From the IMG/VR virus record IMGVR_UViG_3300020202_000188, positions 1-30,136 of that record: 30,136 nucleotides of DNA, one strand, 5' to 3'. The stretch is from a virus. Below the pieces are notes generated by a model. It saw only the letters and a program-made list of their open reading frames with translations, ran no database searches and had not been told where the DNA came from. Both the position numbers and the translations under genes were made by a program. Positions 58-12,814 of this stretch are shown piece by piece; positions within the stretch are counted from its first letter, which is position 1, and the number at the start of each line of letters is the position of its first letter.

Positions 58-522
58 ATGCGCGTGGTCGGCCAGGAACGCATCGCGGAGGCTTTCGGCG
101 TCGCGCCCAAGACCATCGTCGAGTGGCAGGAGGCCGGCTTTCCGATCGCCGTGCGCGGCTCCCGCGGCATCCCAAGCGAATACGACCTCCCGGCCTGCAT
201 CGACTGGCTCGTGAAGCGCGAGGTCGGCAAGGTCCAGGGCGAGTCCCAGCGCGATCGTGTGTTCCGCCTGCAGGGCGACGAGATCGCGATGCGCCTGGCC
301 GAGAAGCAGAAGCTTCTGATCCCGGCCGCCGAGGTCGAGCCGATGTGGACGGCGGCCTGCGTCGCCGCGCGCGAGCAGCTGCAGCGCTCGCGCCGCGCGC
401 TGGCTCGGAAGCTGGCGAAGGCGACCGACGTCAAGGCCCGCGAGCGCCTGATCGGCGAAGTGCACGACGAGTTCCTGCGCACGATGGCTGACTGGGCCCA
501 GGCCGACGAGGCCGCGCCGTGA
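58..522 (+). CDS. Terminase small subunit, lambda Nu1-like
   Basis: This 154-residue protein is the probable DNA-recognition subunit of the packaging motor; it would bind the packaging site and recruit the large subunit. Residues 5-30 read as a winged helix-turn-helix (GQERIAEAFGVAPKTIVEWQ), followed by a Tyr-Asp-Leu segment and an Arg/Glu-rich helical region, the layout of lambda Nu1 (181 residues there, so this is slightly shorter). The start is ATG 58, with AAGG directly abutting it and a GGGGGT further upstream; the first residues align well with the Nu1 N-terminus, so I keep it. It overlaps the large-subunit start by 4 bases (GTGA), the usual pairing of terminase genes. Identification rests on helix-turn-helix pattern, size and position; family assignment is fairly secure, the DNA target is unknown. 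Confidence 0.85.
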   Translation: MRVVGQERIAEAFGVAPKTIVEWQEAGFPIAVRGSRGIPSEYDLPACIDWLVKREVGKVQGESQRDRVFRLQGDEIAMRLAEKQKLLIPAAEVEPMWTAACVAAREQLQRSRRALARKLAKATDVKARERLIGEVHDEFLRTMADWAQADEAAP

Positions 523-2789
523 ACGCTCGCGTGCCGCAGGGCGTCCTCAGCACCGCCGAAGCCCAGGCGTCGATACGGGCCGCCCGCGGCCGCGCGTTGG
601 CGGCTCTGGCGCCGCGGCGCGAACTGTCGATCGTCGAATGGGCGGAGACGCGGCGGAAGATGTCGGAGGAGGAGACCGCGCGCCCAGGCGACTACAGCCT
701 CGAGGAGACCCCGGCCCTGCGCGGCATCCTCATGGCCGCCAGCGACCCGGACGTGCGCCGCATCATCGTGCAGAAGAGCGCGCAGGTCGGCTACACCGCC
801 GGCGTGGCGTGCAACGTCATCGGGTACCACATCCACTGGCGGCCGAGCACCATCGTCGCCATGTTCCCTCGCGAGAAATCGGCGAAGGACTTTGCGGCCG
901 AAAAGCTCGAGCCGATGATCCGCGCCACGCCGGCGCTGGCCGAGCGGGTGAACCTTAAGACCCGGGCGCCCGGCACCGGCACGACGAGGCGGAAGTTCCC
1001 GGGCGGCCTGCTGAAGCTGGTGGCCTCGAACAGCCCCAGCGACGTGAAGTCGACCTCGGGCCGCGTCGGCATCGTCGAGGAACCCGACGACACCAGCCGC
1101 AACGTGAAGGGGCAGGGCAACGCGATTGCGCTGCTGGGCGAGCGCACGAAGACCTACGCGCCCGATGACCTGCAGCTGATCGGCGGCACGCCGACGGCGA
1201 AGGAGACGTCGCTCATCGTCGCGGAGATGCGGTCGACAGACCGCCGCGTGTTCAAGGCGGCCTGCCAGGACTGCGGCGGCCTGCACACGCCGGATTGGGA
1301 TCACGTCACCATCCCGGGATTCCGCCTCAGCGAGGACGACCTCGCGCTGCCGCGCGCCGAGCTCGATGCGAAGTGGCCCGAGCGCGAGGTCTACGGACGC
1401 GCCAGGTGGGAGGACGCCTACTACGCCTGCCCGCACTGCGGCTCGATCTGGAGCGACGACGATCGCATCGAGAACATCCGCCGCGCCGCCCGGGTGCCGC
1501 CGCTCTACGGCTGGGAGCCGACGGCCGAGAGCAGCACGCCGGGCTTCTTCCTGTCGGAGCTCCTGAGCACCTTCGACGGCAGCCGCGTGCCCGAGCTCGC
1601 CCGCAAGTTCCTGGTGGCCCACCACGCGCTGGAGCAGGGGGACGCGACGCTGATGGTCGCGTTCTGGAACAGCACGCGCGGCCTCCCGTGGGAGTTCCGC
1701 GGCGACCTGCCGCAGGAGGACGAACTCCGCGAGCGCGCCGAGCCCTATGCCGAATGGACCTGCCCGGCCGCCGCCCTGGTGCCGGTGATGTTCGTCGACG
1801 TCCAGCACGACCGCCTGGCCATCACGGCGTGGGTCATCGGCCGCGGCGAAGAGGCGTGGCTCGCGCACTGGGGCGAGGTCTACGGCAAGACCGTGGTCGA
1901 GCATGCCGGCGCCTGGCTCGAGCTGGAGCAACTGATGGAGCGCGCCGTGCTGCACGCCAGCGGCGAGCCGCTTTCCATCGCTGCCATCGGCATCGACTCC
2001 GGCGACGGCCAGACCTCGGACGCCGTCTACGCCTTCGTCCGGAAGCACAACCGCGACGGCCGGCCGGTGAGGGCGACCAAGGGCGCATCCGATGGCGTCG
2101 GCCGCGTCGAGATCTGGACCCCGGCGCGCACATCGATCGACCCCGGAAAGAAGCCGACGAAGGCGGCGAAGTACGGCGTCCGCGTCCGCACCATCGGCGC
2201 CGCGAAGGCGAAGGACCTGATCCTCGGCTGGGCGCAGCACGGCGGCCGGGTGCGGCTGACCGGTACCGGCCCGGGCCGCATGCACTGGTATGAGGGTGTC
2301 CGCGACGACTTCTTCGAGCAACTGCTCGGCGAGATGAAGGTGCCCAGCAAGAAGAACCCGCGGGTCCGCGAATGGCAGGAGCGCACCGACCGGCGGAACG
2401 AGGCGTTGGATTGCACCGTCGGCTGCCTGTGGCTGAGCCGCGAGCTGAAGCTGCACCTGCGCACCGCCCGGCAGTGGGATGCCATCGAGAGCCGGATCCT
2501 GCAGCGCGCCGCGCTGCGCCGGGCCGCCTCGGACGCGACGGAAGCCGTCATCGTGGCGACGAAACGCGCCCCGTCGGCGCCGAAGCGCGCCACCGCCGCG
2601 CCGCCAGCCGCCCCAGCAGCGCCGTCCACCGCACAACCCGTGCAGGAGCCCGCGAAACCGGCCGGCCCAGCCGCGGACACCGCCGCTCCCGAAAAAACGC
2701 AGCCAGCGCTCGATGCGCCGGCCCCGCGGCCTATTGCCGCACGGAAGGGCCGCCGAGTGCGCGGCCGATTTGGAGGATGGACCCCATGA
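519..2789 (+). CDS. Terminase large subunit, GpA family
   Basis: Packaging ATPase and nuclease of 756 residues that would cut concatemeric DNA and pump it into the prohead. Visible motifs: a lambda-A-type deviant Walker A (KSAQVGYT, residues 86-93), a Walker B-like GIVEEPDD (184-191), a coupling-type GGTPT (222-226), two CxxC pairs (CQDCGG near 249-252 and ACPHCG near 302-305), and a nuclease domain with FVDVQHDRLAI (Asp426) and IGIDSGDGQ (489-497). These are hallmarks of the GpA family. Lambda A is 641 residues; the excess here is mostly an Ala/Pro-rich tail from about residue 680 ending in basic residues, the end that in lambda contacts the portal. The start is GTG 519, overlapping the small-subunit stop, with GAGG at 508-511. 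The stop overlaps the next start (ATGA). Confidence 0.95.
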   Translation: MNARVPQGVLSTAEAQASIRAARGRALAALAPRRELSIVEWAETRRKMSEEETARPGDYSLEETPALRGILMAASDPDVRRIIVQKSAQVGYTAGVACNVIGYHIHWRPSTIVAMFPREKSAKDFAAEKLEPMIRATPALAERVNLKTRAPGTGTTRRKFPGGLLKLVASNSPSDVKSTSGRVGIVEEPDDTSRNVKGQGNAIALLGERTKTYAPDDLQLIGGTPTAKETSLIVAEMRSTDRRVFKAACQDCGGLHTPDWDHVTIPGFRLSEDDLALPRAELDAKWPEREVYGRARWEDAYYACPHCGSIWSDDDRIENIRRAARVPPLYGWEPTAESSTPGFFLSELLSTFDGSRVPELARKFLVAHHALEQGDATLMVAFWNSTRGLPWEFRGDLPQEDELRERAEPYAEWTCPAAALVPVMFVDVQHDRLAITAWVIGRGEEAWLAHWGEVYGKTVVEHAGAWLELEQLMERAVLHASGEPLSIAAIGIDSGDGQTSDAVYAFVRKHNRDGRPVRATKGASDGVGRVEIWTPARTSIDPGKKPTKAAKYGVRVRTIGAAKAKDLILGWAQHGGRVRLTGTGPGRMHWYEGVRDDFFEQLLGEMKVPSKKNPRVREWQERTDRRNEALDCTVGCLWLSRELKLHLRTARQWDAIESRILQRAALRRAASDATEAVIVATKRAPSAPKRATAAPPAAPAAPSTAQPVQEPAKPAGPAADTAAPEKTQPALDAPAPRPIAARKGRRVRGRFGGWTP

Positions 2790-3220: not shown

Positions 3221-3562
3221 GTGACCGAACCCATCATCACCATCAACGGCACCCTGATGGGCCAAGGCCACGCCATTGCCCTGCGAGCCGCGGTGTCCCG
3301 CATGCTGGAGGCGATGGAAGACCCCGATGCGCTCGGCGACGACGCGATGGGTCGGCGCCACAGGCAGAGCTACATCGACAGGCTGACCGAACTGCAGGTG
3401 CTGCTCCACACGGAACCGCCGCTGTGGCCGTCACCGGTCTACAAGGCACTGGACCCGAAGCTGCCGCCCGGCATCGTGCTGCTCATGCAGGACGGTCGCG
3501 AGGTGGGGCGGATCGTCAATGCGGCGGCCGAGCCAACTCGCGACAACAACGCCGGAGCCTGA
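3221..3562 (+). CDS. Hypothetical phage protein, 113 aa
   Basis: A soluble protein of 113 residues that I cannot assign. The N-terminus is beta-like (EPIITINGTLMGQGHAIALR) and followed by an amphipathic helix; residues 45-60 are charged (MGRRHRQSYIDRLTELQ), and the C-terminal half contains PGIVLLMQDGREVGRIV. The start is GTG 3221, three bases after the preceding stop, with a GGGGTGATGAG purine-rich stretch as ribosome binding site. An overlapping frame beginning ATGATGAG gives a His/Arg/Pro-rich product and looks like a shadow. The pattern of codon use and the acidic-hydrophobic composition favour this frame. It is co-transcribed with the terminase genes; function unknown. Confidence 0.65.
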   Translation: MTEPIITINGTLMGQGHAIALRAAVSRMLEAMEDPDALGDDAMGRRHRQSYIDRLTELQVLLHTEPPLWPSPVYKALDPKLPPGIVLLMQDGREVGRIVNAAAEPTRDNNAGA

Positions 3563-3564
3563 CC

Positions 3565-3766
3565 ATGCTCATCCCGACCAACATCAACCCCGCCGCCTTC
3601 AACGTGCGCTGGCGCCATCGAGCGCGGTGAACTGCAGGACTGGCATGTGCATCAGCTGCAGAACATGGTGATGGCGCTCGGCGGCCAGGCCGACGTGCGC
3701 TCGATGTCGCCGCCGATGCTCAGCCTCTACCTCAACGTGCTGTTGATCGAGAACCTGACGCGATGA
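3565..3766 (+). pseudogene. Small interrupted ORF, apparent +1 frame disruption
   Basis: From ATG 3565 the frame gives a 21-residue peptide (MLIPTNINPAAFNVRWRHRA plus Arg) and stops at 3628-3630. The +1 frame across the same bases continues as protein-like sequence (GAIERGELQDWHVHQLQNMV, then a hydrophobic end LSLYLNVLLIENLTR) to a TGA at 3764-3766. Joined by a +1 shift near 3610-3627 the two parts would make one protein of about 67 residues. A separate 39-codon ORF from GTG 3647, with CAGGA upstream, is the alternative. The junction could be a real mutation, a sequencing or assembly error, or a recoding site at CGG TGA; sequence alone cannot tell. Function unknown. Confidence 0.4.
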
Positions 3767-3801
3767 AAAAGGCCCCGCAGCGTTGACGCGCCGCGGGGCC
3801 T
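3766..3801 (-). terminator. Rho-independent terminator reading the minus strand
   Basis: A perfect 9-bp stem pairs AGGCCCCGC (3770-3778) with GCGGGGCCT (3793-3801) around a 14-nt loop that can form a short inner hairpin. A run of five A lies just left of the stem at 3766-3770, so on the minus strand the GC-rich hairpin ends in a T-run. On the plus strand the hairpin is followed by TGGGTGG with no T-run, so it is not a good forward terminator. No convincing minus-strand gene lies to its right. Confidence 0.5.
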
Positions 3802-3856
3802 GGGTGGTGGTGAATCGGAGAAGGGAGAGCCCGATTGGAAACCACCCGAGGTGCAA

Positions 3857-4222
3857 ATGGCAACCCTGAAGCGCGATTCGATCATCCGCCGCCTGGCCGA
3901 GCGCGCGTCCAGCCACGAAGGGCTGCAGACCGCGGTCTGGTCTGTCGTCCGCCAAGAGCTGCCCGGCATCCTCGAGGAGGTGCTGTCGGACATGGCGGAC
4001 GCCGGCGAATACCGGTTCCGGATCTATCCGCGGAAGCGGCCTGTTCGACAGCGCAGGCAGCGCGACGAACTGGTGCGCAAGCTGCTGGGCGATGGGGTCG
4101 CGCCGGCTGAAGTGGCCGACCGGGCGAAGTGCTCGCTGTCGCACGTCTACTCGATTCGGGCGCGTGACCAGACCGCGGCAGCCCAGCCAGATGTCGCGGT
4201 GGCGGCAGAAATAGAGGTCTGA
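3857..4222 (+). CDS. Mor-like helix-turn-helix transcription activator
   Basis: A basic protein of 121 residues resembling the Mor/C activator family of Mu-like phages. The N-terminal half is helical (RLAERASSHEGLQTAVWSVV) and would be the dimer part; then RFRIYPRKRP matches the short strand before the DNA-binding helices in Mor, and LLGDGVAPAEVADRAKCSLS with HVYSIRARDQ forms a plausible helix-turn-helix ending in the recognition helix. Mor is 129 residues, so the size fits. The start is ATG 3857 with GAGGTG at 3848-3853; a GTG at 3851 overlaps that site and is less likely. It follows a gene-poor stretch and is followed at its stop codon by the dyad repeat R1, which may be its target (inference). 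Similarity is judged by eye, so the family call is moderate. Confidence 0.55.
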   Translation: MATLKRDSIIRRLAERASSHEGLQTAVWSVVRQELPGILEEVLSDMADAGEYRFRIYPRKRPVRQRRQRDELVRKLLGDGVAPAEVADRAKCSLSHVYSIRARDQTAAAQPDVAVAAEIEV

Positions 4223-4285
4223 TCTCCAAATTTCGGGGCCCTAGTTTTGGAATGATCCCGCGCCGAAAGTGGCCGCCGTCATGCG
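4221..4285 (+). repeat. Repeat R1, left copy flanking the adhesion-type cassette
   Basis: This segment aligns with R2 (8448-8510): about 50 of 65 columns agree by eye with one 2-base gap, including CTAGTTTTGGAA at 4241-4252. Its inner dyad is degenerate (CTCCAAATTT against AGTTTTGGAA, 7 of 10 pairing). The similarity ends at ATGCG (4281-4285); in R1 this ATG is followed by CGA TGA, a two-codon dead frame, whereas in R2 the same ATGCG begins a real gene. R1 starts within the stop codon of the Mor-like gene. Confidence 0.7.
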
Positions 4286-4296
4286 ATGACGCGGCT

Positions 4297-4332
4297 GGGC
4301 TCCTTCGTGGTCCTGCGCGCCCGAAGGAGCCC
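4297..4332 (+). promoter_or_regulatory. Hairpin covering the ribosome binding site of the next gene
   Basis: GGGCTCCTTCG (4297-4307) and CGAAGGAGCCC (4322-4332) are a perfect 11-bp inverted repeat with a 14-nt loop. The right arm contains AAGGAG (4324-4329), the Shine-Dalgarno sequence eight bases before ATG 4338. In the mRNA this stem would hide the site. No T-run follows, so it is not a terminator. Translational control is inferred; the pairing is directly visible. Confidence 0.6.
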
Positions 4333-4337
4333 TCGAA

Positions 4338-4739
4338 ATGGCGAATGCAGTCCTCCCGGCCACCAAGAAGGCCGCGCTCGACGCCATCCTGGCGACGGGC
4401 ACGGCCAAGGCCTACCTGATCGACACCGCGGTCTACACCTACAGTTCCGCGCACGACTTCCTTGCTGACATCCCGAGCGGCGCCCGCATCGGCTCCGCGG
4501 TCACGCTGCAGAACGTCACGACCACCGACGGCGTTCTCGACGCCGACGATGTCAGCTTCACCGGCCTGGTGGCCGCCCCCACGATCGAGGCAGTCGCCAT
4601 CTGCGTTGACACCGGCGTGGAGGCGACTTCGCGCTTCCTCTGCTACATCGACACCGCTACGGGCTTGCCAGTGAGCGCAGGCGCCACGCAGGTTGACGTG
4701 GCCTGGAGCAACGGCGCCAACAAGATCTTCAAGCTCTAA
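4338..4739 (+). CDS. Conserved small phage virion-type protein, 133 aa
   Basis: This 133-residue protein matches a family common in tailed phages and usually left unnamed: an N-terminal KAYLIDTAVYTY segment, then DFLADIPSGARIG, a central DGVLDADDVSFTG, and the characteristic C-terminus ATGLPVSAG with WSNGANKIFKL. The composition is beta-rich and free of membrane segments. I infer a structural role, perhaps decorating the head or anchoring the following adhesion-type proteins. It is the first gene of the cassette between repeats R1 and R2. Its ribosome binding site AAGGAG (4324-4329) lies inside an 11-bp hairpin, so translation may be controlled. The stop is followed after 14 bases by the BNR-type gene. 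Confidence 0.8.
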   Translation: MANAVLPATKKAALDAILATGTAKAYLIDTAVYTYSSAHDFLADIPSGARIGSAVTLQNVTTTDGVLDADDVSFTGLVAAPTIEAVAICVDTGVEATSRFLCYIDTATGLPVSAGATQVDVAWSNGANKIFKL

Positions 4740-4753
4740 CGCCGGGGTTCCTC

Positions 4754-5980
4754 GTGCGAGCAATCCCGCAGCGCGCCAGGGCATACGGCTTCAGCAAGCC
4801 GGCGGTGGTCAATCCGCTCGCGCCCTTCCAGGTCATCGCAGACGGGAATGGAACGATCGGCTCCGGGCCCAGTGTGGTGTACAGGAACGGTGCCACGTAC
4901 TTCGGCTGGGTGAATTCCAGCGGCGATGTCGGCATCACCAAGTACGTCCACGCCACGCAGGCGCTGACCAGCTTCACGCTGGCGGCAGCTTTCGAGGTCA
5001 ACGGGCACGACAACGCAACCATCAGCATCCTGCCCGATGGCCGAATCATGTGCCTGTACTGCAAGCACAACGACACAGGCGAGATGCGCATGAGGATCAG
5101 CACCTCCGCCTACGACATCAGTGCATGGAGTCCGCAGACGACCGTCGATGTCTTGAACTCGGGCGGCGGGATGGCCTACAACCTGACGTTCCAGTTGAGC
5201 GTCACCGGCAAGACCTACATGCTCTATCGCGCTGGCAGCTGGGCGCAGCGCATGCGTGCCACCGTGGATGGCTCAACCTGGGACACGGACAGGGTGGTGA
5301 TCAGCAATGGCTCGCAGCGCCCGTACCCACAGGTGTATTCGGACGGGGTGTCACGTGTCGACTTCGTTTTCTCGACTGGAAATCCCGCCCAGGTCGCGAA
5401 CTCCCTGTACCACGGGTACATGATTTCAGACGCGGGCGGCACGGAAACCTACTACAAGTCAGACGGCACGCTGATTGGTGCCGCTCCGCTGACGCCAGCG
5501 AATGCCACGCTCGTCTATGACGGCACGTCGCAGGACGGCTGGGCCTGGGACATTGCGACCGGTCCGGATGGCCATCCTTGGGTGCTGTGGGTCAAGTACG
5601 TGACGCCTGGGACCGACCATAGGCATATGTTCAGCCGTTGGACTGGTTTAGCGTGGGTGCACACCGAGATCACACCCTCTGGCGGCAGCATCGACACGCA
5701 GACGTACAGCGATGGCCAGGCCTGCTTCGACGGCAACGACCCGACGAAGGCCTACCTCTCAAAGCGCGTTGGCTCATGGAATGAGATTCAGCTTTGGGAG
5801 ACCAGCGACAGTGGCGCGACCTGGAGCAAGACGGCTGACATCACGAGCGGTAGCAGCGTTCATGCATTCACGCCGCGCAGTCCCGAGGGGCATGCTGGTG
5901 ATCTTACGGTGAGCTGGTACTCCGGCACGCAAGTGGACTACCTCGATTACGACACGGCTATTCGCGCTGCAGGTGCCTGA
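4754..5980 (+). CDS. BNR/sialidase-fold beta-propeller protein
   Basis: A 408-residue protein with the repeat pattern of a sialidase-like propeller, close to the BNR_4-type family. Repeated blade units include SGPSVVYRNGATYFGWVN, HDNATISILPDGRIMCLY, DGHPWVLWVKYV and, near residue 350, a clear Asp-box SDSGATWSK. There is no signal peptide, so it should reach the outside as part of the virion. Members of this fold bind or cleave glycans; I see no proof of the sialidase catalytic Arg triad, so binding or another glycosidase activity is equally possible. The start is GTG 4754 with GGGG at 4743-4746; its C-terminus overlaps the next gene's leader by a few bases. The base composition is visibly less GC-rich than in the terminase or capsid genes, which suggests separate acquisition with the rest of the cassette. 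Confidence 0.7.
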   Translation: MRAIPQRARAYGFSKPAVVNPLAPFQVIADGNGTIGSGPSVVYRNGATYFGWVNSSGDVGITKYVHATQALTSFTLAAAFEVNGHDNATISILPDGRIMCLYCKHNDTGEMRMRISTSAYDISAWSPQTTVDVLNSGGGMAYNLTFQLSVTGKTYMLYRAGSWAQRMRATVDGSTWDTDRVVISNGSQRPYPQVYSDGVSRVDFVFSTGNPAQVANSLYHGYMISDAGGTETYYKSDGTLIGAAPLTPANATLVYDGTSQDGWAWDIATGPDGHPWVLWVKYVTPGTDHRHMFSRWTGLAWVHTEITPSGGSIDTQTYSDGQACFDGNDPTKAYLSKRVGSWNEIQLWETSDSGATWSKTADITSGSSVHAFTPRSPEGHAGDLTVSWYSGTQVDYLDYDTAIRAAGA

Positions 5981-5981
5981 G

Positions 5982-7247
5982 ATGGCGGAATTCGTCAACG
6001 AGCAGTTCGGCGGCACCTCCGGAACGGAGCTGTCGGCTTACAACGCCGCATGGTCAACGATCGGCGGGTTTGCGGCGGCCGGCCGCATCAGCAATGCGGG
6101 CAGACTGAGGCACAGCAGCACTGGGACTTTTGCCTACAAGAACTCAGGCGCGCCTGCGTCAGCGGACTATCACGTAGCAGCTGATGTCCACTATGTAGGC
6201 GCTGGCTCGACGGAGGCCGGCATTGCGGTGCGGATCAGCGGACCAGACGCGACCGCCTCATATTACTTCGTGCGATACGAGGCGACAGGGCAGGAGTTCG
6301 AGCTATACAAGGTAGTAAGCGGCACCCCGACGCTCTTGACGAACGCCGCGTATTCGCTATCGGTCGGTGGCAGCTTCCGCATGGCGCTACAGGCGATAGG
6401 GTCCACCATCAAGGTCTATGCGGCCGGCGCAGAGGTCATCAGCATCACCAACGCCGACATCACCGCAGCCGGGGTTGCGGGCGTGCGGTTCAGCGGCTCC
6501 GCGGCCGGTAGTGACACGGTTGGACTGCATCTCGACAACCTGGTCGCGGCCGACGGCGCCTTTCTCGATGCCACGGCGCCAATCCTCACGAGTGCAACGT
6601 CCAATGTGACGGGGCAGACCACGGCCACTCTTGGCGCAACCACCGACGAGGCCAACGGCACCATGTATGCGGTGGTCACGACCAGCGCAACCCAGCCGAG
6701 CGTGGCGCAGATCGTGGCCGGCCAGGACCACACCGGAAGCGCGGCGGTCTTCGCCGGCAACCAGGCCATCAGCAGCACCGGGGCCAAGACGTTCAACGCC
6801 ACAGGTCTGACGGCGGCGACCGCGTACTACGGGCATATGGTGCACCGCGATGCCGCGAACAACGACAGCAACCGGCTCAGCACCAGCCAATTCACTACGC
6901 TGCCCAACGCGCCGACGGCTCCAACGATTGGCGCAACGACCGGCATCACTAGCAGCGGCGCGACCATCAACTGGACGGACAACAGTTCGGACGAAACCGG
7001 TTTCCAGATCCAGGTCGAGACGCCGAGCGGCGCCGGCAACTGGACGAACGCCAACACCAGCCCCGCAGCGGCCAACGCGACGAGCCTTGCCATCGGCGGC
7101 CTGTCCAGCAGCACCGAGTACCGGCCGCGGGTGCGCGCCTCGAATGCAGGCGGTGACTCCGCGTGGTCTACGGGGACCGCTTTCAACACGGCCGCCGGTG
7201 GCGGTGGCTCCACCTTGCTGCCGAAGCTCATGCAGCTCATGAACTGA
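5982..7247 (+). CDS. Lectin-like plus fibronectin III domain virion protein
   Basis: A 421-residue modular protein. Residues about 1-190 look like a concanavalin-type beta-sandwich (DYHVAADVHYVGAGSTEAGI, VRISGPDATASYYFVRYEA, VGLHLDNLVAAD). Residues about 195-305 form one Ig/FN3-like unit (APILTSATSNVTGQTTATLG), and 307-402 a canonical fibronectin III domain (SGATINWTDNSSDETGFQIQ, LSSSTEYRPRVRASNAGGDS). A Gly linker and a short LLPKLMQLMN helix end the protein. FN3 and lectin-like domains on phage particles are known surface-adhesion modules, so host or environment binding is likely; no catalytic motif is seen. I use ATG 5982, six bases after AGGTG; an in-frame GTG at 5973 is possible. It lies in the cassette between the BNR gene and a beta-domain gene. 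Confidence 0.7.
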   Translation: MAEFVNEQFGGTSGTELSAYNAAWSTIGGFAAAGRISNAGRLRHSSTGTFAYKNSGAPASADYHVAADVHYVGAGSTEAGIAVRISGPDATASYYFVRYEATGQEFELYKVVSGTPTLLTNAAYSLSVGGSFRMALQAIGSTIKVYAAGAEVISITNADITAAGVAGVRFSGSAAGSDTVGLHLDNLVAADGAFLDATAPILTSATSNVTGQTTATLGATTDEANGTMYAVVTTSATQPSVAQIVAGQDHTGSAAVFAGNQAISSTGAKTFNATGLTAATAYYGHMVHRDAANNDSNRLSTSQFTTLPNAPTAPTIGATTGITSSGATINWTDNSSDETGFQIQVETPSGAGNWTNANTSPAAANATSLAIGGLSSSTEYRPRVRASNAGGDSAWSTGTAFNTAAGGGGSTLLPKLMQLMN

Positions 7248-7257
7248 AGGACCGACC

Positions 7258-7983
7258 ATGCTCCACCCCGCGATCAAGAAGGGCTCTACCGACCGCAGTG
7301 TGTATCTGCGCATCGTGGACTCGACCGACGGCACACCGGAGACTGGTGTGGTGTTCAACACGTCGGGGATTGACCTTTGGTATCGCCGGGATGGAGCGGC
7401 CAAGGTCAGTATCACGGAGGCCACGCTTTCCGCGTTGACCGATGCGCACAGCGACGGCGGCTTCCTGCACGTCGGCGACGGCTACTACCGCTTGGACCTG
7501 CCAGACGCTGCTTTGGCCGCCGGCTCCAACAGCGTGCTCGTCGGCGGGACCGTCACTGGAATGGTCGTGCTCGGCGCGCTTGTGCCGCTGGTCGACTATG
7601 ACCCGCAGGACACGGTGCGCCTGGGCCTTACCGCGCTTCCCAACGCAGCCGCGGCAGCCAGCGGCGGCTTGCCGACGGTCGACTCCGCCAACGACGTCGG
7701 CATTCAGACCGGGCTGAAGAAGAACCAGGCCTGGAACAACTTCACATTCCTGATGGTCGACAACACGACCGAGGTGCCCGCGACGGGCCTCACGGTCACC
7801 GCCACGCGCTCGATCGACGGCGGCGCCTTCGGCGCCGGCACGCTGGGCGCGGTGAGCGAGATCGGCAGCGGCTACTACAAGCTCAACATTCCGCAGGCCG
7901 ACCTGAACGGCGACACGGTGACGCTGGTCTTCAGTGCCACCGGCGCGAAGACCCACGGCGTCACGCTGCGGCTTGAGCCCTGA
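7258..7983 (+). CDS. Tandem beta-domain phage structural protein
   Basis: This 241-residue protein contains two related domains. Domain 1 (about 1-120) has DRSVYLRIVDSTDG and GDGYYRLDLPDAALAAGS; domain 2 (about 155-241) has WNNFTFLMVDNTTEVPATGL and GSGYYKLNIPQADLNGDT. The shared GxGYYxLxxPxADL block and similar spacing point to an internal duplication, each copy resembling small Ig-like folds common in phage fibres and base structures. No enzyme motif is visible. The start is ATG 7258 with AAGGA at 7247-7251, overlapping the stop of the FN3 gene. Its place in the cassette suggests it links or displays the neighbouring adhesion-type proteins; this is inference. Confidence 0.65.
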   Translation: MLHPAIKKGSTDRSVYLRIVDSTDGTPETGVVFNTSGIDLWYRRDGAAKVSITEATLSALTDAHSDGGFLHVGDGYYRLDLPDAALAAGSNSVLVGGTVTGMVVLGALVPLVDYDPQDTVRLGLTALPNAAAAASGGLPTVDSANDVGIQTGLKKNQAWNNFTFLMVDNTTEVPATGLTVTATRSIDGGAFGAGTLGAVSEIGSGYYKLNIPQADLNGDTVTLVFSATGAKTHGVTLRLEP

Positions 7984-7995
7984 TCGTCGGCGGCG

Positions 7996-8439
7996 ATGCA
8001 CATCTACCGCGCACGCGGCGCGATCATCGAATGGGAGCGGGCGTCCTCGTCGGCCCCGGTGGTTGCGGCCGCGCTGTGGGAACTGCTGTCTCGCCATGGC
8101 GGCCGCGTGCGTCATTGGTGGGCAGATGCAGCTGCCGGTGGCACGGCCACGGTGACGGATGCCGGCGGCATCGCGAGCGGTGAAGCATTCGGGACGGCCG
8201 CCGTCTCGTCGAGCACCCTGGCCAGCGTGACGGGTGCGGGCGGCATCGCCTCCGAAGAGGCATTCGGCACCGCCGCGGTCAGCTCGAACCTCACGAGCAG
8301 CGTCAGCGGCGCAGGAGGCATTGCCAGCAGCGAGGCGTTCGGCTCGCCAGCCTTCTCACCGACGTTCGAACTGGTCGGCGACCTGACCCGATCGCGGTGG
8401 CGCATAGGCCGAAAGATCATCCCGACCAGCGGGGTTTGA
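7996..8439 (+). CDS. Short protein with 25-residue GGIASxEAFG repeats
   Basis: A 147-residue protein. The first 50 residues are amphipathic with WERASSSAPVVAAALWELLS and a Trp-Trp pair; residues 55 to about 122 are two full and one partial copy of a 25-residue unit, G/DAGGIASxEAFGTAAVSS plus a variable tail. The remaining 25 residues end in a basic RSRWRIGRKII. Similar I-A-S-x-E-A-F-G repeats occur in phage fibre-type proteins, where they probably form stacked beta turns. No signal peptide or catalytic motif is seen. It is the last gene of the cassette, 12 bases after the preceding stop, and is followed by repeat R2. Its exact function is unknown; a fibre or spacer role is inferred. Confidence 0.6.
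   Translation: MHIYRARGAIIEWERASSSAPVVAAALWELLSRHGGRVRHWWADAAAGGTATVTDAGGIASGEAFGTAAVSSSTLASVTGAGGIASEEAFGTAAVSSNLTSSVSGAGGIASSEAFGSPAFSPTFELVGDLTRSRWRIGRKIIPTSGV
8158..8361 (+). repeat. 75-bp tandem repeat inside the preceding CDS
   Basis: Units start at 8158, 8233 and 8308; the first two are 75 bp, the third is partial. Each encodes the AGGIASxEAFG block. The codons differ between units (for example gcattc against gcgttc), so the copies are not recent perfect duplicates. Confidence 0.75.
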
Positions 8440-8447
8440 AGCGCTCC

Positions 8448-8510
8448 GAGTTCCAAAACTCGGGGCTCTAGTTTTGGAACGCCGCGGCGCTGACAGTGCG
8501 CCGCCATGCG
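8448..8510 (+). repeat. Repeat R2, right copy, with a perfect 10-bp dyad
   Basis: R2 carries TTCCAAAACT (8451-8460) and AGTTTTGGAA (8470-8479), a perfect inverted repeat around the 9-nt spacer CGGGGCTCT. Together with R1 it brackets the genes at 4338-8439. Such a dyad could be a regulator operator or an RNA hairpin; no T-run follows, so it is not an obvious terminator. It ends at the start codon of the next gene. Confidence 0.75.
8484..8504 (+). promoter_or_regulatory. Hairpin abutting the start codon of the W-position gene
   Basis: GCGGCGC (8484-8490) pairs perfectly with GCGCCGC (8498-8504) around a 7-nt loop, one base before ATG 8506. The gene has no recognisable Shine-Dalgarno sequence, so initiation may be weak, depend on coupling, or be controlled by this structure. 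Confidence 0.45.
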
Positions 8511-9066
8511 CAGCGTGCCGCGCCTCATTGCAGGCGACTCCCTCAGCTTCGAGACCACGGTCTCAGCCTATCCGGCCGATCAGGGCTGGACGCTGAAATA
8601 CCGGCTCGTGCCGCGCTTCACGTCGCCGGTGCAGGCGCCGATCACGCTAACCGCCACGACCTACCAGACCAGCGGTTATCAGGTCATGGTGGCGCCTGGC
8701 ACGACGGCACTGTGGACGGCCGGCATCTACGGCTGGTCCAGCTGGGTCGAGAAGACCGGCGAGCGGATCACGCTGGAGAGCGGCGAGATCACGGTCGCGC
8801 CTGACCCGGCCACCAGCGCGCAGGGCCTGGACACGCGCACCGATGCGGCGATCGCGCTGGCCAACGTGCGAGCAGTCATCCAGGGCGTCGCGAGCAAGAA
8901 CGTCCTGAAGTACGAGATCAACGGCCGGTCGCTGGAGCACTACTCCATCCCGGACCTGATCACGCTGGAGCAGAAGCTGTCGCGCGACGTTGCCCGCGAA
9001 GAGAACGCGGCCGGCATGGCCATGGGGCTGAAGAACCGGCGCCAGATCATGGTGAGGTGCCGGTGA
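8506..9066 (+). CDS. W-position phage protein with C-terminal head-joining-like region
   Basis: A 186-residue protein between terminase and portal, the position of lambda W. The N-terminal 105 residues are a beta-rich domain (RLIAGDSLSFETTVSAYPA, GWTLKYRLVPRF, WSSWVEKTGERITLESGEI). The C-terminal 78 residues are helical: TDAAIALANVRAVIQG, SKNVLKYEINGRSLEHYSI, and a basic end. This C-terminal pattern is typical of small phage proteins encoded before lambda-type portals. A role in sealing or stabilising DNA-filled heads, as for lambda W (68 residues), is inferred from location; the long N-terminal domain is extra. The N-terminus fits homologous proteins I recall, so ATG 8506 is kept despite having no Shine-Dalgarno. 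The stop overlaps the portal start (TGATG). Confidence 0.65.
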   Translation: MRSVPRLIAGDSLSFETTVSAYPADQGWTLKYRLVPRFTSPVQAPITLTATTYQTSGYQVMVAPGTTALWTAGIYGWSSWVEKTGERITLESGEITVAPDPATSAQGLDTRTDAAIALANVRAVIQGVASKNVLKYEINGRSLEHYSIPDLITLEQKLSRDVAREENAAGMAMGLKNRRQIMVRCR

Positions 9067-10700
9067 TGGCTGGGCCGCGCCTCTCGCTGCTGGGCCGCAT
9101 CGTCGACGCGTTCCGCGCGCCGGCGGAAGTGCGTCGACCGGACCCTGCACGCCGGGTCGGTGCCCGCATGTACGCCGCCGCCCGCGGCAGTCGGATGTCC
9201 GGCAGCTTCGGCAACGGGGGCGACTCCAGTGCCGACGCCGAACTGTCGATGAGTCTGTCGCGCCTGCGCGCCGGCTCGCGGCAGATGGTGCGCGACAGCT
9301 CGTACGCGAAGCGCGCAAAGGTCATCGTCAAGAACAACGTCATCGGCTCCGGCGTCGGCATGCAGGCCCAGGTCGGAACGAACCGCGCCGGTGCAAACAG
9401 CCGCATCAACGCCGACATCGAAGCGGTGTTCGGTGCTTGGTGCAAGGCCGACACCTGCCACACCGGCGGCGCCGTGCACTTCCATGACCTTGAGCGCATG
9501 GCCCTAGGCCAGGTGTTCGAGGCGGGCGAGGTCTTCATTCGCAAGCACCGGCGCGCCTTCGGCGCCAGCGCTGTGCCTCTGGCGCTGGAGGTGATCGAGT
9601 CGGAGCGGGTTCCGCTCGACATCGCGCTACCCAGCGCAGACGGCAAGACGACCGAGACCCGCATGGGGATTGAGCAGGACGAGTACGGCCGCGCCATCGC
9701 CTACTGGATCCGCAAGAAGCACCCCGGCGATCTGCGCTCGCCCGGCACGACCGCTGACCTCTACGAGCGCGTCGAGGCGGAATACATCCTGCACCTGCGC
9801 ATCATCGATCGATGGCCGCAGGCCCGCGGCGAGCCCTGGCTGCACACCGCGGTCCGCAAGCTCAACGACATGGACCAGTACAGCGGCTCGGAGGTCCAGG
9901 CCGCTCGCGCATCCGCTCGGGTCTTCGGGACCATCGAGACCCCCGAGGGCGATGCTCCGCTCGCAACCGATGAAGAGGATGACGGCACGCCGGTCTTCGA
10001 CATCGAGGACGGCACGATTCAGCAGCTGAATCCCGGCGAGAAGCTGGAATGGCACGCGCCGAACCGGCCGAACACCGCGCTCGACCCATTCATGCGCTAC
10101 ATGCTGCGCGAAGTCGCGGCCGGCGTGGGCGTCAGCTACGAGAGCCTGTCGCGCGACTACAGCCAGTCGAACTACAGCAGCTCGCGCCTTGCGCTGCTCG
10201 ATGACCGCGACCTCTGGCGCACGCTGCAGCAGTGGTGGATCCGGGCATTCCGCGATCCGCTGCATGCCGAATGGCTGCGCCAGGCCGTCTACGCGCGGGC
10301 CATCACCAGCATCTCGGTCGAGCAGTACGCGCTGAACCCGGCGAAGTTCGAAGCCGTCGTGTGGAAGCCGCGCGGCTGGTCGTGGGTGGACCCGACCAAG
10401 GAAGTCAAGGCTTACAAGGAAGCGATCCGCGCTGGCCTGACATCGGCAACGGACGTTATCGCTGCCACCGCCGACGGCCGCGACATCGAAGACGTCATCG
10501 GCGCACTGCAGCGCGAGCGCGAGCTTTTCGCGCAGGCCGGCATCACGGTCGACACCGACGTGGCCGCCGAGCAGGCCGCCGCCCAACCGAAGGCCGCGGC
10601 GGATCTTGAGGCAGATGACGACGAGGGCGCCCCTGCGCAGCCGGCGCGCCGCAGCGTGCCGCCGCTTCGCCCGGTTCCCGCAACAGGACTCATGCAATGA
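9066..10700 (+). CDS. Portal protein, lambda gpB family
   Basis: A 544-residue portal that forms the dodecameric ring at the packaging vertex and docks terminase, then the tail. Family signatures are clear: an N-terminal AARGSRMSGSFGNGGDSSAD and LRAGSRQMVRDSSYAKRAK, a stretch KNNVIGSGVGMQ, and the highly typical GVGVSYESLSRDYSQSNYSS followed by SRLALLDDRDLWR. The C-terminal 70 residues are acidic and Ala/Pro-rich. Lambda B is 533 residues, so the length is normal. ATG 9066 is used with GAGGTG at 9054-9059; an in-frame GTG at 9057 lies inside that site. In lambda the portal is trimmed by the head protease; the protease here is the N-terminal part of the next gene, which starts at 10697 overlapping this stop (ATGA). 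Confidence 0.95.
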   Translation: MAGPRLSLLGRIVDAFRAPAEVRRPDPARRVGARMYAAARGSRMSGSFGNGGDSSADAELSMSLSRLRAGSRQMVRDSSYAKRAKVIVKNNVIGSGVGMQAQVGTNRAGANSRINADIEAVFGAWCKADTCHTGGAVHFHDLERMALGQVFEAGEVFIRKHRRAFGASAVPLALEVIESERVPLDIALPSADGKTTETRMGIEQDEYGRAIAYWIRKKHPGDLRSPGTTADLYERVEAEYILHLRIIDRWPQARGEPWLHTAVRKLNDMDQYSGSEVQAARASARVFGTIETPEGDAPLATDEEDDGTPVFDIEDGTIQQLNPGEKLEWHAPNRPNTALDPFMRYMLREVAAGVGVSYESLSRDYSQSNYSSSRLALLDDRDLWRTLQQWWIRAFRDPLHAEWLRQAVYARAITSISVEQYALNPAKFEAVVWKPRGWSWVDPTKEVKAYKEAIRAGLTSATDVIAATADGRDIEDVIGALQRERELFAQAGITVDTDVAAEQAAAQPKAAADLEADDDEGAPAQPARRSVPPLRPVPATGLMQ

Positions 10701-12814
10701 CGACACGTTCATTCAAGCTGGACCGCGCCAAGGCGCGCCGCGAGAAGGATGGCGGCGACCTGGTGGTCGATATGGCATTCGCCAGCGAGGTGCCGTATGA
10801 GCGCTGGTGGGGGATCGAGATCCTCCGCTGCAACGAGAAGGCCGTCCGACTGGGCCGCCTGAACGACGGCGCGCCGCTGCTCTTCAATCACAACTGGCGC
10901 GACCTGCGCGGCACGCACGTGCCCGGCAGCGTGCGCTGCGATGACGACGGCGTGCTGCGCGGCAAGGTGCGCATCACCAGCGCCACGCAGGAAGGCCGAG
11001 ACGCGATCGGCCTGGTCGAGGGCGACATCCTCACGAAGGCAAGCGTCGGCTACGAGATCCACAAGGTCATCGAGCGCACCACCAGCAAGAGTGGCGGGCC
11101 GATCGAGCGAACCATCGACGGAGCCACGTTCCGCCGCGCACTCGAATCTCGTGGCGTCACCCGGGTTGGCGATCGAGGCGACGGCGACGTCCAGGCCTTC
11201 CGCCGCGACCTCGATGCCGCGGCCGGCCCGCTGGACCGCGCCGCCGACGACGTGCCCGTCTACGAGGTCGTCGACTGGGAGCCCTTCGAAGACTCCCTTG
11301 TGACCGTGCCTGCCGACAACACCGTCGGCGTCGGCCGCTCGCACGCGGCAGCCCCCGTCACAACCACCGTGCAGACGCCAGGCGGCTCCACGGTGCAGAT
11401 CACCGAAGGCGGCGCACAGCCGCCGGCGGCGACCGAGCAGGAGCGCGCAGCCAGCGCGCCGCCCGCCACAGCCGCAAGCGTCACCAAGGTCACCACCCCC
11501 GCCGTCCCGGCGACCCATCAGGAGAAAGCCACCATGGCAGAAGCCCAAGCCGCCGCGGGTGCCGCGGAAACCCGTCACGACCCGCTGGAGGTCGAGAAGA
11601 ACCGCAAGGCGGCGATCGGCAACATGTGCCGCGCCAGCAAGATCGACCCGCGCGTCGAGGACCAGTGGGTGCGCGATGGCGCCACGCTGGAAGAGGTCGC
11701 CGAGAAGATCCTGAAGGTGATGGAAGAGCGCGGCAAGGAGCGCCCCACCGCAGCCTCTGACCTGGGCTTGACGCGCGCCGAAACCCAGCGCTTCAGCCTG
11801 TTCCGCGCCATCCGCGCGATGCGCACGCCGACGCAGGAGAACATCAACCTCGCCGCCTACGAGTTGGAGTGCTCCCGCACGCTGGCTAAGCGGCTGCAGC
11901 GCGAAGACAGCAACAGCATCTTCATTCCCGGAGAAGTGCTGCAGCGCCCGCTGGGCGAGGCCGCGCAGCGCGCGATGTCGACCACGCCCGGCAGCAAGGG
12001 CGGCTTCATGGTCAACGTCGAGAACATGGGCTTCATCGACATCCTGCGCAACCGCAGCGTGACGATGCGCATGGGCGCCCGTCGCCTGCCGGGCCTGGTG
12101 GGCAACGTCACCATTCCCCGCCAGACCGGCAAGGGCACGGTGACCTGGCAGGGTGGCGAGGGCACCAGCGTCACGGCCACCGACCAGGCCCTGGGCCAGC
12201 TGTCGATGACGCCGAAGACCGCCATTGCGATCACGGACGCGTCGGAGCAGCTGCTGCGCCAAGCCACCCCGAGCGCCGAGGCCTTCATCATGGCTGACCT
12301 CGCCGCCGACATCGCGATCGATGGCGTCGATTACGTCGCCATCAACGGCACCGGCGGCGCGCAGCCGCTCGGCATCAAGAACACGACCGGCATCACGTCC
12401 GGCCAGGACGCCGCGTCCGCGACCTACGCGAAGCTGCTGGCCTTCGTCTCGACGGCCGGCGCATCGAACGCCATCCGCGGCAACCCCGGCTTCGTGACCA
12501 ACACGGCCGGCGCGGCGAAGCTGATGACCGTGCAGCGCTTCTCGGGCACCGACACCCCGGTGTGGGAAGGGAACATGCTCGACGGCACGCTGTGCGGCTT
12601 CAACGCCATGTCGTCCGAACAGCTGGCCTCCGGCAACCTGATTTTCGGCTCGTGGGACGAGGTCGTGATCGGCGAGTGGGGCGTGCTGGAGCTGGCCATG
12701 GACAACGGCGGCACGCGCTTCAACCAGGCGCAGGTCGGCATCCGCGCGATGTGGATGGTCGACGTGCTGGTGCGCTACCCGCAGGCCTTCGTCGTCTCGA
12801 CGAACCTGTCGTAA
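10697..12814 (+). CDS. Prohead protease - major capsid protein fusion
   Basis: A 705-residue polyprotein. Residues 1 to about 215 are a HK97-type (U35/S78) prohead serine protease: the catalytic His is probably H65 in LLFNHNW and the nucleophile S116 in LTKASVGYEI. Residues 215-279 are a Thr/Ala/Pro-rich linker. From 280 a helical, charged delta-type segment leads into a HK97-fold capsid domain from about 400 (STTPGSKGGFMVNVENMGF, VTIPRQTGKGTVTWQGGEGT, AINGTGGAQPLGIKNTTGI). Protease cleavage would separate the parts during head maturation. Fused protease-capsid ORFs are known in phages. ATG 11534 with AGGAG is an in-frame internal start that would yield capsid alone. It overlaps the portal by 4 bases. 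Confidence 0.9.
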   Translation: MTTRSFKLDRAKARREKDGGDLVVDMAFASEVPYERWWGIEILRCNEKAVRLGRLNDGAPLLFNHNWRDLRGTHVPGSVRCDDDGVLRGKVRITSATQEGRDAIGLVEGDILTKASVGYEIHKVIERTTSKSGGPIERTIDGATFRRALESRGVTRVGDRGDGDVQAFRRDLDAAAGPLDRAADDVPVYEVVDWEPFEDSLVTVPADNTVGVGRSHAAAPVTTTVQTPGGSTVQITEGGAQPPAATEQERAASAPPATAASVTKVTTPAVPATHQEKATMAEAQAAAGAAETRHDPLEVEKNRKAAIGNMCRASKIDPRVEDQWVRDGATLEEVAEKILKVMEERGKERPTAASDLGLTRAETQRFSLFRAIRAMRTPTQENINLAAYELECSRTLAKRLQREDSNSIFIPGEVLQRPLGEAAQRAMSTTPGSKGGFMVNVENMGFIDILRNRSVTMRMGARRLPGLVGNVTIPRQTGKGTVTWQGGEGTSVTATDQALGQLSMTPKTAIAITDASEQLLRQATPSAEAFIMADLAADIAIDGVDYVAINGTGGAQPLGIKNTTGITSGQDAASATYAKLLAFVSTAGASNAIRGNPGFVTNTAGAAKLMTVQRFSGTDTPVWEGNMLDGTLCGFNAMSSEQLASGNLIFGSWDEVVIGEWGVLELAMDNGGTRFNQAQVGIRAMWMVDVLVRYPQAFVVSTNLS
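11520..11536 (+). promoter_or_regulatory. Internal ribosome binding site and start inside the fusion ORF
   Basis: AGGAG at 11520-11524 precedes ATG 11534 by nine bases, in frame with the fusion (codon 280). It lies exactly at the end of the low-complexity linker, where the capsid part begins, and it matches the Shine-Dalgarno quality of true starts in this operon. Confidence 0.6.
11534..12814 (+). CDS. Nested in-frame capsid-only product
   Basis: Translation from ATG 11534 would give a 426-residue protein with delta-type helices (VEEVAEKILKVMEER-like region, 30-75 residues in) and the complete HK97-fold capsid domain, without the protease. This solves the stoichiometry problem of a protease-capsid fusion: few protease copies and many capsid subunits are needed per head. 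It parallels lambda C/Nu3, where scaffold is made from an internal in-frame start of the protease gene, though here the nested product is the capsid itself. The start signal is visible; its use in the cell is inferred. Confidence 0.5.
   Translation: MAEAQAAAGAAETRHDPLEVEKNRKAAIGNMCRASKIDPRVEDQWVRDGATLEEVAEKILKVMEERGKERPTAASDLGLTRAETQRFSLFRAIRAMRTPTQENINLAAYELECSRTLAKRLQREDSNSIFIPGEVLQRPLGEAAQRAMSTTPGSKGGFMVNVENMGFIDILRNRSVTMRMGARRLPGLVGNVTIPRQTGKGTVTWQGGEGTSVTATDQALGQLSMTPKTAIAITDASEQLLRQATPSAEAFIMADLAADIAIDGVDYVAINGTGGAQPLGIKNTTGITSGQDAASATYAKLLAFVSTAGASNAIRGNPGFVTNTAGAAKLMTVQRFSGTDTPVWEGNMLDGTLCGFNAMSSEQLASGNLIFGSWDEVVIGEWGVLELAMDNGGTRFNQAQVGIRAMWMVDVLVRYPQAFVVSTNLS

What the first reader, a model, noticed from the sequence alone, without database searches (positions are those of the whole stretch)
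4221..8510. Adhesion-type gene cassette bracketed by two related dyad repeats, ending at the same start-codon context
R1 (4221-4285) and R2 (8448-8510) share about 50 of 65 columns by eye, including an identical CTAGTTTTGGAA, and both end at ATGCG. In R2 this ATG starts the W-position gene; in R1 it is followed by CGA TGA, a dead two-codon frame. That is what is expected if a five-gene block was inserted just upstream of the W-position gene and the intergenic leader was duplicated or shared. All five genes between the repeats encode beta-rich modules (conserved virion protein, BNR propeller, lectin/FN3, tandem beta domains, 25-residue repeats), and their DNA is less GC-rich than terminase or capsid. 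The repeats could let related phages swap the block by homologous recombination.
Basis: partly seen in the sequence, partly recalled or inferred. Interest (0 to 1): 0.7.

Follow-up and report, generated by a model that had tools for sequence, protein, structure and literature searches.

The report
Twin late promoters bracketing phage adhesion genes
The two matching repeats around this phage's block of surface-binding genes are best explained as two copies of the same on-switch (a late promoter read by the phage's own activator), a kind of switch found with different spelling in many related environmental phages; this explains the repeats without them being swap sites.

Summary
R1 and R2 are a real, unique pair of related dyads: 75% identical over 59 nt, self-alignment score 51 against 23 for the next best place, and the only two copies in the 57-kb sister contig. 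The block between them lies at a variable site: in relatives the TerL-to-W gap is either about 25-500 bp or 1.4-8 kb. The mechanism is probably not the one proposed. In over 25 related phages a dyad with a conserved centre, but different and mutually complementary arms, sits 36-38 nt before the W start codon and 30 nt (25 of 26) before a -10-like hexamer, with no Shine-Dalgarno (0 of 26). It co-occurs with a Mor/C-type activator gene just behind TerL. Seven genomes carry further copies; the six inspected lie before tail genes, four right after a terminator. Two other phages show the bracketed layout with their own sequence. R1 and R2 are therefore most likely two late promoters, one for the adhesion operon and one for W-portal-capsid, probably switched on by the Mor-like protein encoded next to R1. 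Swapping through the repeats is not excluded, but not needed. Activator binding and the transcription start are inferred, not shown.

The parts
519..2789 (+). TerL, lambda gpA-type; upstream anchor of the variable site
   Evidence: GpA_ATPase 4e-64 and GpA_nuclease 1e-74; relatives with 57-71% identity
3857..4222 (+). Mor/C-like activator gene (121 aa, C-terminal HTH); its stop codon abuts R1
   Evidence: phrog_836 late transcriptional activator, 0.01; 42% identity, 6e-19, to the homologue at the same place in L155; profile of the set matches Mu Mor 1rr7, 3e-5
4225..4251 (+). R1 dyad (imperfect), proposed activator operator; centre 4238
   Evidence: alignment to R2; unique in the contig
4265..4270 (+). 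R1 -10-like hexamer GAAAGT, 32 nt after the dyad centre
   Evidence: same spacing as R2
4281..4289 (+). ATGCGATGA, relic start-codon context of R1
   Evidence: sequence; alignment to the W start
4297..4332 (+). 11-bp hairpin whose 3' arm holds the AAGGAG site of the first cassette gene
   Evidence: sequence; RNA fold z = -2.4
4338..4739 (+). Cassette gene 1, conserved virion-type protein (phrog_644)
   Evidence: 1e-21; relative = gene 24 of Mycobacterium phage phiT46-1, behind the minor tail genes
4754..5980 (+). Cassette gene 2, BNR_4 propeller
   Evidence: Pfam 5e-23
5973..7247 (+). Cassette gene 3, fibronectin type III domain
   Evidence: Pfam 3e-10
7258..7983 (+). Cassette gene 4, no family found
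7996..8439 (+). Cassette gene 5, 25-residue repeats and a C-terminal RIG motif shared with the pre-W gene of relatives
   Evidence: 75-nt repeat in DNA; RIG motif
8450..8480 (+). R2 dyad (perfect 10-bp arms), proposed activator operator; centre 8465
   Evidence: same kind of dyad before W in relatives
8484..8504 (+). R2 core: -10-like hexamer GACAGT (8492-8497) inside a 7-bp palindrome
   Evidence: hexamer pattern in relatives
8506..9066 (+). W-position (head-tail joining) gene, no Shine-Dalgarno
   Evidence: phrog_5774 1.6e-36; sequence upstream

Best explanation
R1 and R2 are two copies of one late-promoter element. The dyad is the operator of a Mor/C-type activator, most likely the protein encoded at 3857-4222 directly before R1. 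It stands where a -35 box would be, about 37-40 nt upstream of the transcription start, with a -10 hexamer 32 nt after its centre (30 in relatives). R2 starts the W-portal-capsid operon with an mRNA that begins at or within a few nt of the W start codon (leaderless or nearly so). R1 starts the five-gene adhesion operon with a leader of about 55-60 nt whose hairpin contains the ribosome-binding site. R1 and R2 share their arms because one activator reads both; arms differ between phages because activator and operator diverge together. The shared ATGCG suggests the two leaders are true duplicates. Shown: the repeat, its fixed position, arm complementarity across phages, conserved centre, -10 pattern, lack of Shine-Dalgarno, association with Mor-like genes, further copies at other operon starts. 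Inferred: activator binding, transcription start, and the direction of the duplication.
For: Dyad centre 36-38 nt before the W ATG in 26 leaders, hexamer nAnnnT ending 30 nt after the centre in 25 of 26. nAnnnT in 18 of 18 distinct leaders against 2.5 +/- 1.4 in shuffles; no Shine-Dalgarno in 26 of 26 against 38 of 79 with one in other long ORFs of the same loci; all ATG; C at -1 in 25 of 26. Arms covary: 174 of 306 Watson-Crick cells against 127.8 +/- 7.5 when re-dealt, G-T not enriched among mismatches. Mor-like gene behind TerL in the same phages; motif in 28 of 45 loci with it and 1 of 54 without. Arms track the activator's HTH half, Mantel 0.74, partial 0.44. Seven genomes hold further copies; the six inspected lie before tail genes, four behind a terminator against 12 of 2400 random places. 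Same bracketed layout with other sequences in L155/L072 and L143 with L033. Mu Mor binds inverted repeats with a G/C-rich spacer centred at -43.5 in place of a -35 element (PMC4390567).
Against: No transcription data. The window's Mor-like protein is divergent: a profile without it and its nearest homologues does not pick it up, and its predicted fold gives no significant match to Mor. Arms here are about 19 bp apart centre to centre, against about 11 bp in Mu Pm, so the binding geometry must differ. A palindrome around the -10 hexamer is not explained by a plain promoter. The motif patterns were read from the same data, and related loci are not independent.
Confidence: 0.7

Rival explanations
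1. One reading: R1 and R2 are homology arms (a duplicated intergenic leader) through which related phages exchange the whole adhesion block.
For: The TerL-W gap is variable in content and length; three phages have repeats at both edges of the cassette; single-copy forms exist.
Against: The repeats differ between phages, so they offer little homology between partners; identical copies also stand before the tail operon; other cassette-bearing relatives have no element at all. The -10 and start-codon geometry is left unexplained.
Confidence: 0.12
2. RNA element: two hairpins in the mRNA just before the start codon control translation of W and of the cassette.
For: Fixed distance to the start codon, no Shine-Dalgarno, a second palindrome directly before the ATG (stem sum 121 against 91.7 +/- 4.6 in shuffles).
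Against: No excess of G-T pairs in the arms; the long dyad is not the best RNA fold in either copy, and R1 folds no better than shuffles; terminators directly before four tail-side copies mean transcription has to start after them.
Confidence: 0.13
3. The element is a promoter, but of another regulator (a phage or host factor), and the Mor-like gene is only a neighbour.
For: The window's Mor-like protein is divergent; arm spacing differs from Mu.
Against: Association with Mor-like genes; correlation of arms with the activator HTH; phage-specific operators fit a phage-encoded regulator.
Confidence: 0.2

Closest known systems
Phage Mu middle promoter Pm and late promoters with activators Mor and C
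   Same: A Mor/C-type activator; dyad with a GC-containing centre in place of the -35 box (Pm: 5-bp inverted repeats, G/C-rich 6-nt spacer, centred at -43.5; PMC4390567); a weak -10 only
   Different: Longer arms set further apart; arms specific to each phage; start at or next to the start codon; the activator gene sits behind a lambda-type TerL in non-Mu phages
P2/186 late promoters with Ogr/B (TGT-N12-ACA)
   Same: One dyad repeated before several head and tail operons, read by one phage activator (PMC3931495)
   Different: Ogr is a zinc-finger protein and its site is constant; here an HTH protein and variable arms
SAS/ESAS repeats of cluster K mycobacteriophages
   Same: Repeated element tied to start codons; ESAS adds 17-bp inverted repeats just upstream (PMC3203893)
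   Different: SAS: 11-19 copies per genome, contain AGGAG and have a proposed translation role; here 1-3 copies at operon starts and no Shine-Dalgarno

Membership tests
Mor/C activator family (PF08765 / phrog_836) | Sequence match of the window protein to the family models | tested here: inconclusive
   PF08765 not reported at E 0.1; phrog_836 at 0.01, 6e-4 in the single-record search
Mor/C activator family (PF08765 / phrog_836) | Homologues at the same place (behind TerL) belong to the family | tested here: met
   8 of 24 aligned members match PF08765, best 1e-13; 17 of 24 match phrog_836; set profile matches Mu Mor 1rr7 3e-5 and Mu C 0.0025
Mor/C activator family (PF08765 / phrog_836) | Mor-like fold (helical dimerisation domain, beta strand, HTH) | tested here: inconclusive
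   Model pLDDT 84, all helical with a confident C-terminal HTH; no significant PDB match
Mor/C-dependent promoter | Dyad with a GC-containing centre upstream of a -10 hexamer and no -35 | tested here: met
   no sigma-70 type promoter found in 3500-9200
Mor/C-dependent promoter | Activator binding and activator-dependent transcription | not testable with these tools
   Needs footprinting and transcript mapping
SAS/ESAS of cluster K mycobacteriophages | 13-bp GGGATAGGAGCCC in many copies at start codons | tested here: not met
   two copies, no AGGAG before the W ATG
Recombination-bracketed exchange cassette | The same repeats shared by phages carrying different genes between them | tested here: not met
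   Exact repeat found only in this phage's own contig; other bracketed phages use other sequences. Only one partial relative of the window-type repeat was found (L229)

The most novel reading that the evidence does not exclude
A widespread family of phage-specific, leaderless late promoters read by Mor/C-type activators behind lambda-type terminases, with a fixed core and rapidly changing operator arms. Because each copy is a complete operon start including the start codon, a promoter-plus-genes unit can be added before W, which may be how adhesion operons enter the head region.
Probability: 0.4. Interest if true: 0.68.

Novelty: new variant of a known kind. Interest (0 to 1): 0.55.

Why it matters
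It would give a simple rule for finding late operons and their activator in a large group of uncultured phages, a natural series of matched activator-operator pairs, and a case of virion genes whose mRNA starts at the start codon. It also explains how a tail-fibre-like gene block can be expressed from inside the head-gene region.

Tried and rejected
Exact-motif search of viral contigs: only this phage's own contig. Self-comparison of W leaders in relatives first showed no second copies, because the L072 locus stopped short of the cassette start; the full contig showed the pair. PF08765 missed most of the activator set; phrog_836 and a home-made profile found it. Mor protein search in viral contigs: only itself. 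Rfam: nothing. Integron attC or tyrosine-recombinase site: considered because of the dyad with a short spacer; disfavoured because the centre is conserved and the arms vary, and because of the -10 and start-codon geometry. Cultured relatives VP882 and Marinobacter phage PS3 have TerL and W/portal abutting, and no Mor-like gene was found in the stretches of VP882, PS3 or Pseudomonas phage KT1 that were read. Pfam and PHROGs gave no convincing family for the large cassette proteins of relatives. Fold comparison of the activator model with the PDB gave only HTH-level matches.

Full report
OBSERVATION. R1 and R2 are real and unusual. The ungapped match is 75% over 59 nt; R2 aligned to the rest of the window scores 51 at R1 and at most 23 elsewhere on that strand. 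The core occurs nowhere else in the window or in the 57,037-bp sister contig holding the same sequence. R2 is a perfect 10-bp dyad with an 11-nt centre; R1 is an imperfect version. In both, the distance from dyad centre to the last base of the hexamer GAAAGT/GACAGT is 32 nt.

GENE CONTEXT. The window starts with lambda-type TerS and TerL, then g3, g4, a small HTH gene (3857-4222), R1, five adhesion-type genes, R2, W, portal and a protease-capsid fusion. The phage is a mosaic: TerL is 57-71% identical to phages whose portal, where found, is only 24-28% identical to the window's, whereas portal, W and capsid match a second lineage whose TerL is mostly about 30% identical. In relatives the space between TerL and W is either small (about 25-500 bp) or holds 1.4-8 kb of genes. 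The cassette site is therefore real and variable. The last cassette gene, directly before W, ends in RIG motifs in most of these phages, including the window, so the cassette looks native to the W-portal-capsid lineage.

THE ELEMENT IN RELATIVES. In many phages of the TerL-related lineage a Mor/C-family gene lies directly behind TerL. Upstream of W there is a dyad whose centre (TTGCCTA and variants) is conserved but whose arms differ: GCGAAATT/AATTTCGC, GCGACATT/AATGTCGC, GGACATTTC/GAAATGTCC, TGCAATTTTT/AAAAATTGCA, GTCCGGTTT/AAACCGGAC, ATTCCAGTTTT/AAAACTGGAAT. The window's GTTCCAAAAC/GTTTTGGAAC is of this kind, and L229, whose W is 53% identical, has GGGGCTCTGGTTTTGGA...GGACAGTGCGGCCGC before its W. 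Across 34 elements the arms pair far above re-dealt arms (174 against 127.8 +/- 7.5), with no excess of G-T pairs, which favours a DNA dyad over an RNA stem. RNA folding agrees: in neither R1 nor R2 is the long dyad the best RNA fold.

PROMOTER SIGNS. In 26 leaders the dyad centre is 36-38 nt before the ATG, and a hexamer nAnnnT ends 30 nt after the centre in 25 of them, 31 in the other. The hexamer is present in 18 of 18 distinct leaders (2.5 +/- 1.4 in shuffles). The base before the ATG is C in 25 of 26, all start codons are ATG, and none has a Shine-Dalgarno, against 38 of 79 other long ORFs of the same loci (this set overlaps the 26 above but is not letter for letter the same). Where the centre is farther from the start codon (by inspection, L089 and L090) a GGAG-type site is present. 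This is what a promoter with its start at or next to the ATG would look like. The same element occurs twice in six of these genomes and three times in one; the six further copies inspected lie before tail-type genes, four of them right behind an intrinsic terminator, against 12 of 2400 random places.

ACTIVATOR. Among 99 distinct TerL-W loci the motif is in 28 of 45 with a Mor-like gene and 1 of 54 without (Fisher p = 7e-12; related sequences are not independent, and the patterns were read from the same data). Operator arms follow the HTH half of the activator (Mantel r = 0.74; 0.44 after removing the N-terminal half). Mu Mor replaces the -35 contact by binding inverted repeats with a G/C-rich spacer centred at -43.5 (PMC4390567). 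The family profile matches Mu Mor (3e-5) and Mu C (0.0025) over nearly its whole length. The window's own protein is a divergent member by position and by 42% identity to its homologue in L155; its model shows an HTH but no significant Mor fold match, and a profile built without it and its nearest homologues does not reach it. I therefore call it Mor/C-like and leave binding as an inference.

BRACKETED CASSETTES. The architecture recurs with other sequences. In the contig of the closest portal relative (L072/L155) CTGACAGGTTCCACCCTTAATTTGTCAGCGC occurs before the cassette and, identically, before W, about 10.15 kb apart, with the Mor homologue upstream. In L143 TAGTCCATTTTTGCCTTA occurs twice behind TerL and a Mor-like gene, and again before W in L033 of the same sample and in L025; that L143 and L033 are one phage is likely but not shown. 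The simplest reading is one promoter per late operon, with the cassette as an extra late operon. Other cassette-bearing relatives have neither element nor Mor-like gene and presumably transcribe the cassette with W from upstream.

VERDICT. R1 and R2 most likely start two co-regulated late operons. The family of phage-specific, probably leaderless late promoters is the more interesting result. I found no paper describing it in the library searched, which does not prove absence.

Noticed in passing
8416-8424 region of gene 7996-8439, and ORFs before W in L009, L019, L021, L027, L028, L035, L041, L072 and others: The gene directly before W ends in one to six copies of an R-(x)-I-G motif in about 22 of 25 portal-lineage phages, often overlapping the W start by ATGA; possibly a conserved virion-anchoring tail.
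   Followed up: partly
519-2789 against 8506-12814: Mosaic genome: the terminase belongs to one phage lineage, W-portal-capsid to another.
   Followed up: partly
8484-8504 and the same place in relatives: The -10-like hexamer lies inside a GC-rich palindrome with variable arms directly before the ATG (stem sum 121 against 91.7 +/- 4.6 in shuffles); its role is unexplained.
   Followed up: partly
3770-3801, minus strand: A strong intrinsic terminator-like hairpin with a T run on the minus strand, 13 pairs, between g4 and the Mor-like gene.
   Followed up: no
4338-4739; L023 5017-5415; L079 1412-1810; L090 11251-11652: The phrog_644 gene changes place among phages: behind TerL here, between portal and capsid in L023 and L079, behind the portal in L090, next to minor tail genes in Mycobacterium phage phiT46-1.
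   Followed up: partly
L104 12401-13117: By eye, a HicA/HicB-like toxin-antitoxin pair sits between the Mor-like gene and the W promoter, showing that this gap also takes up other genes.
   Followed up: no
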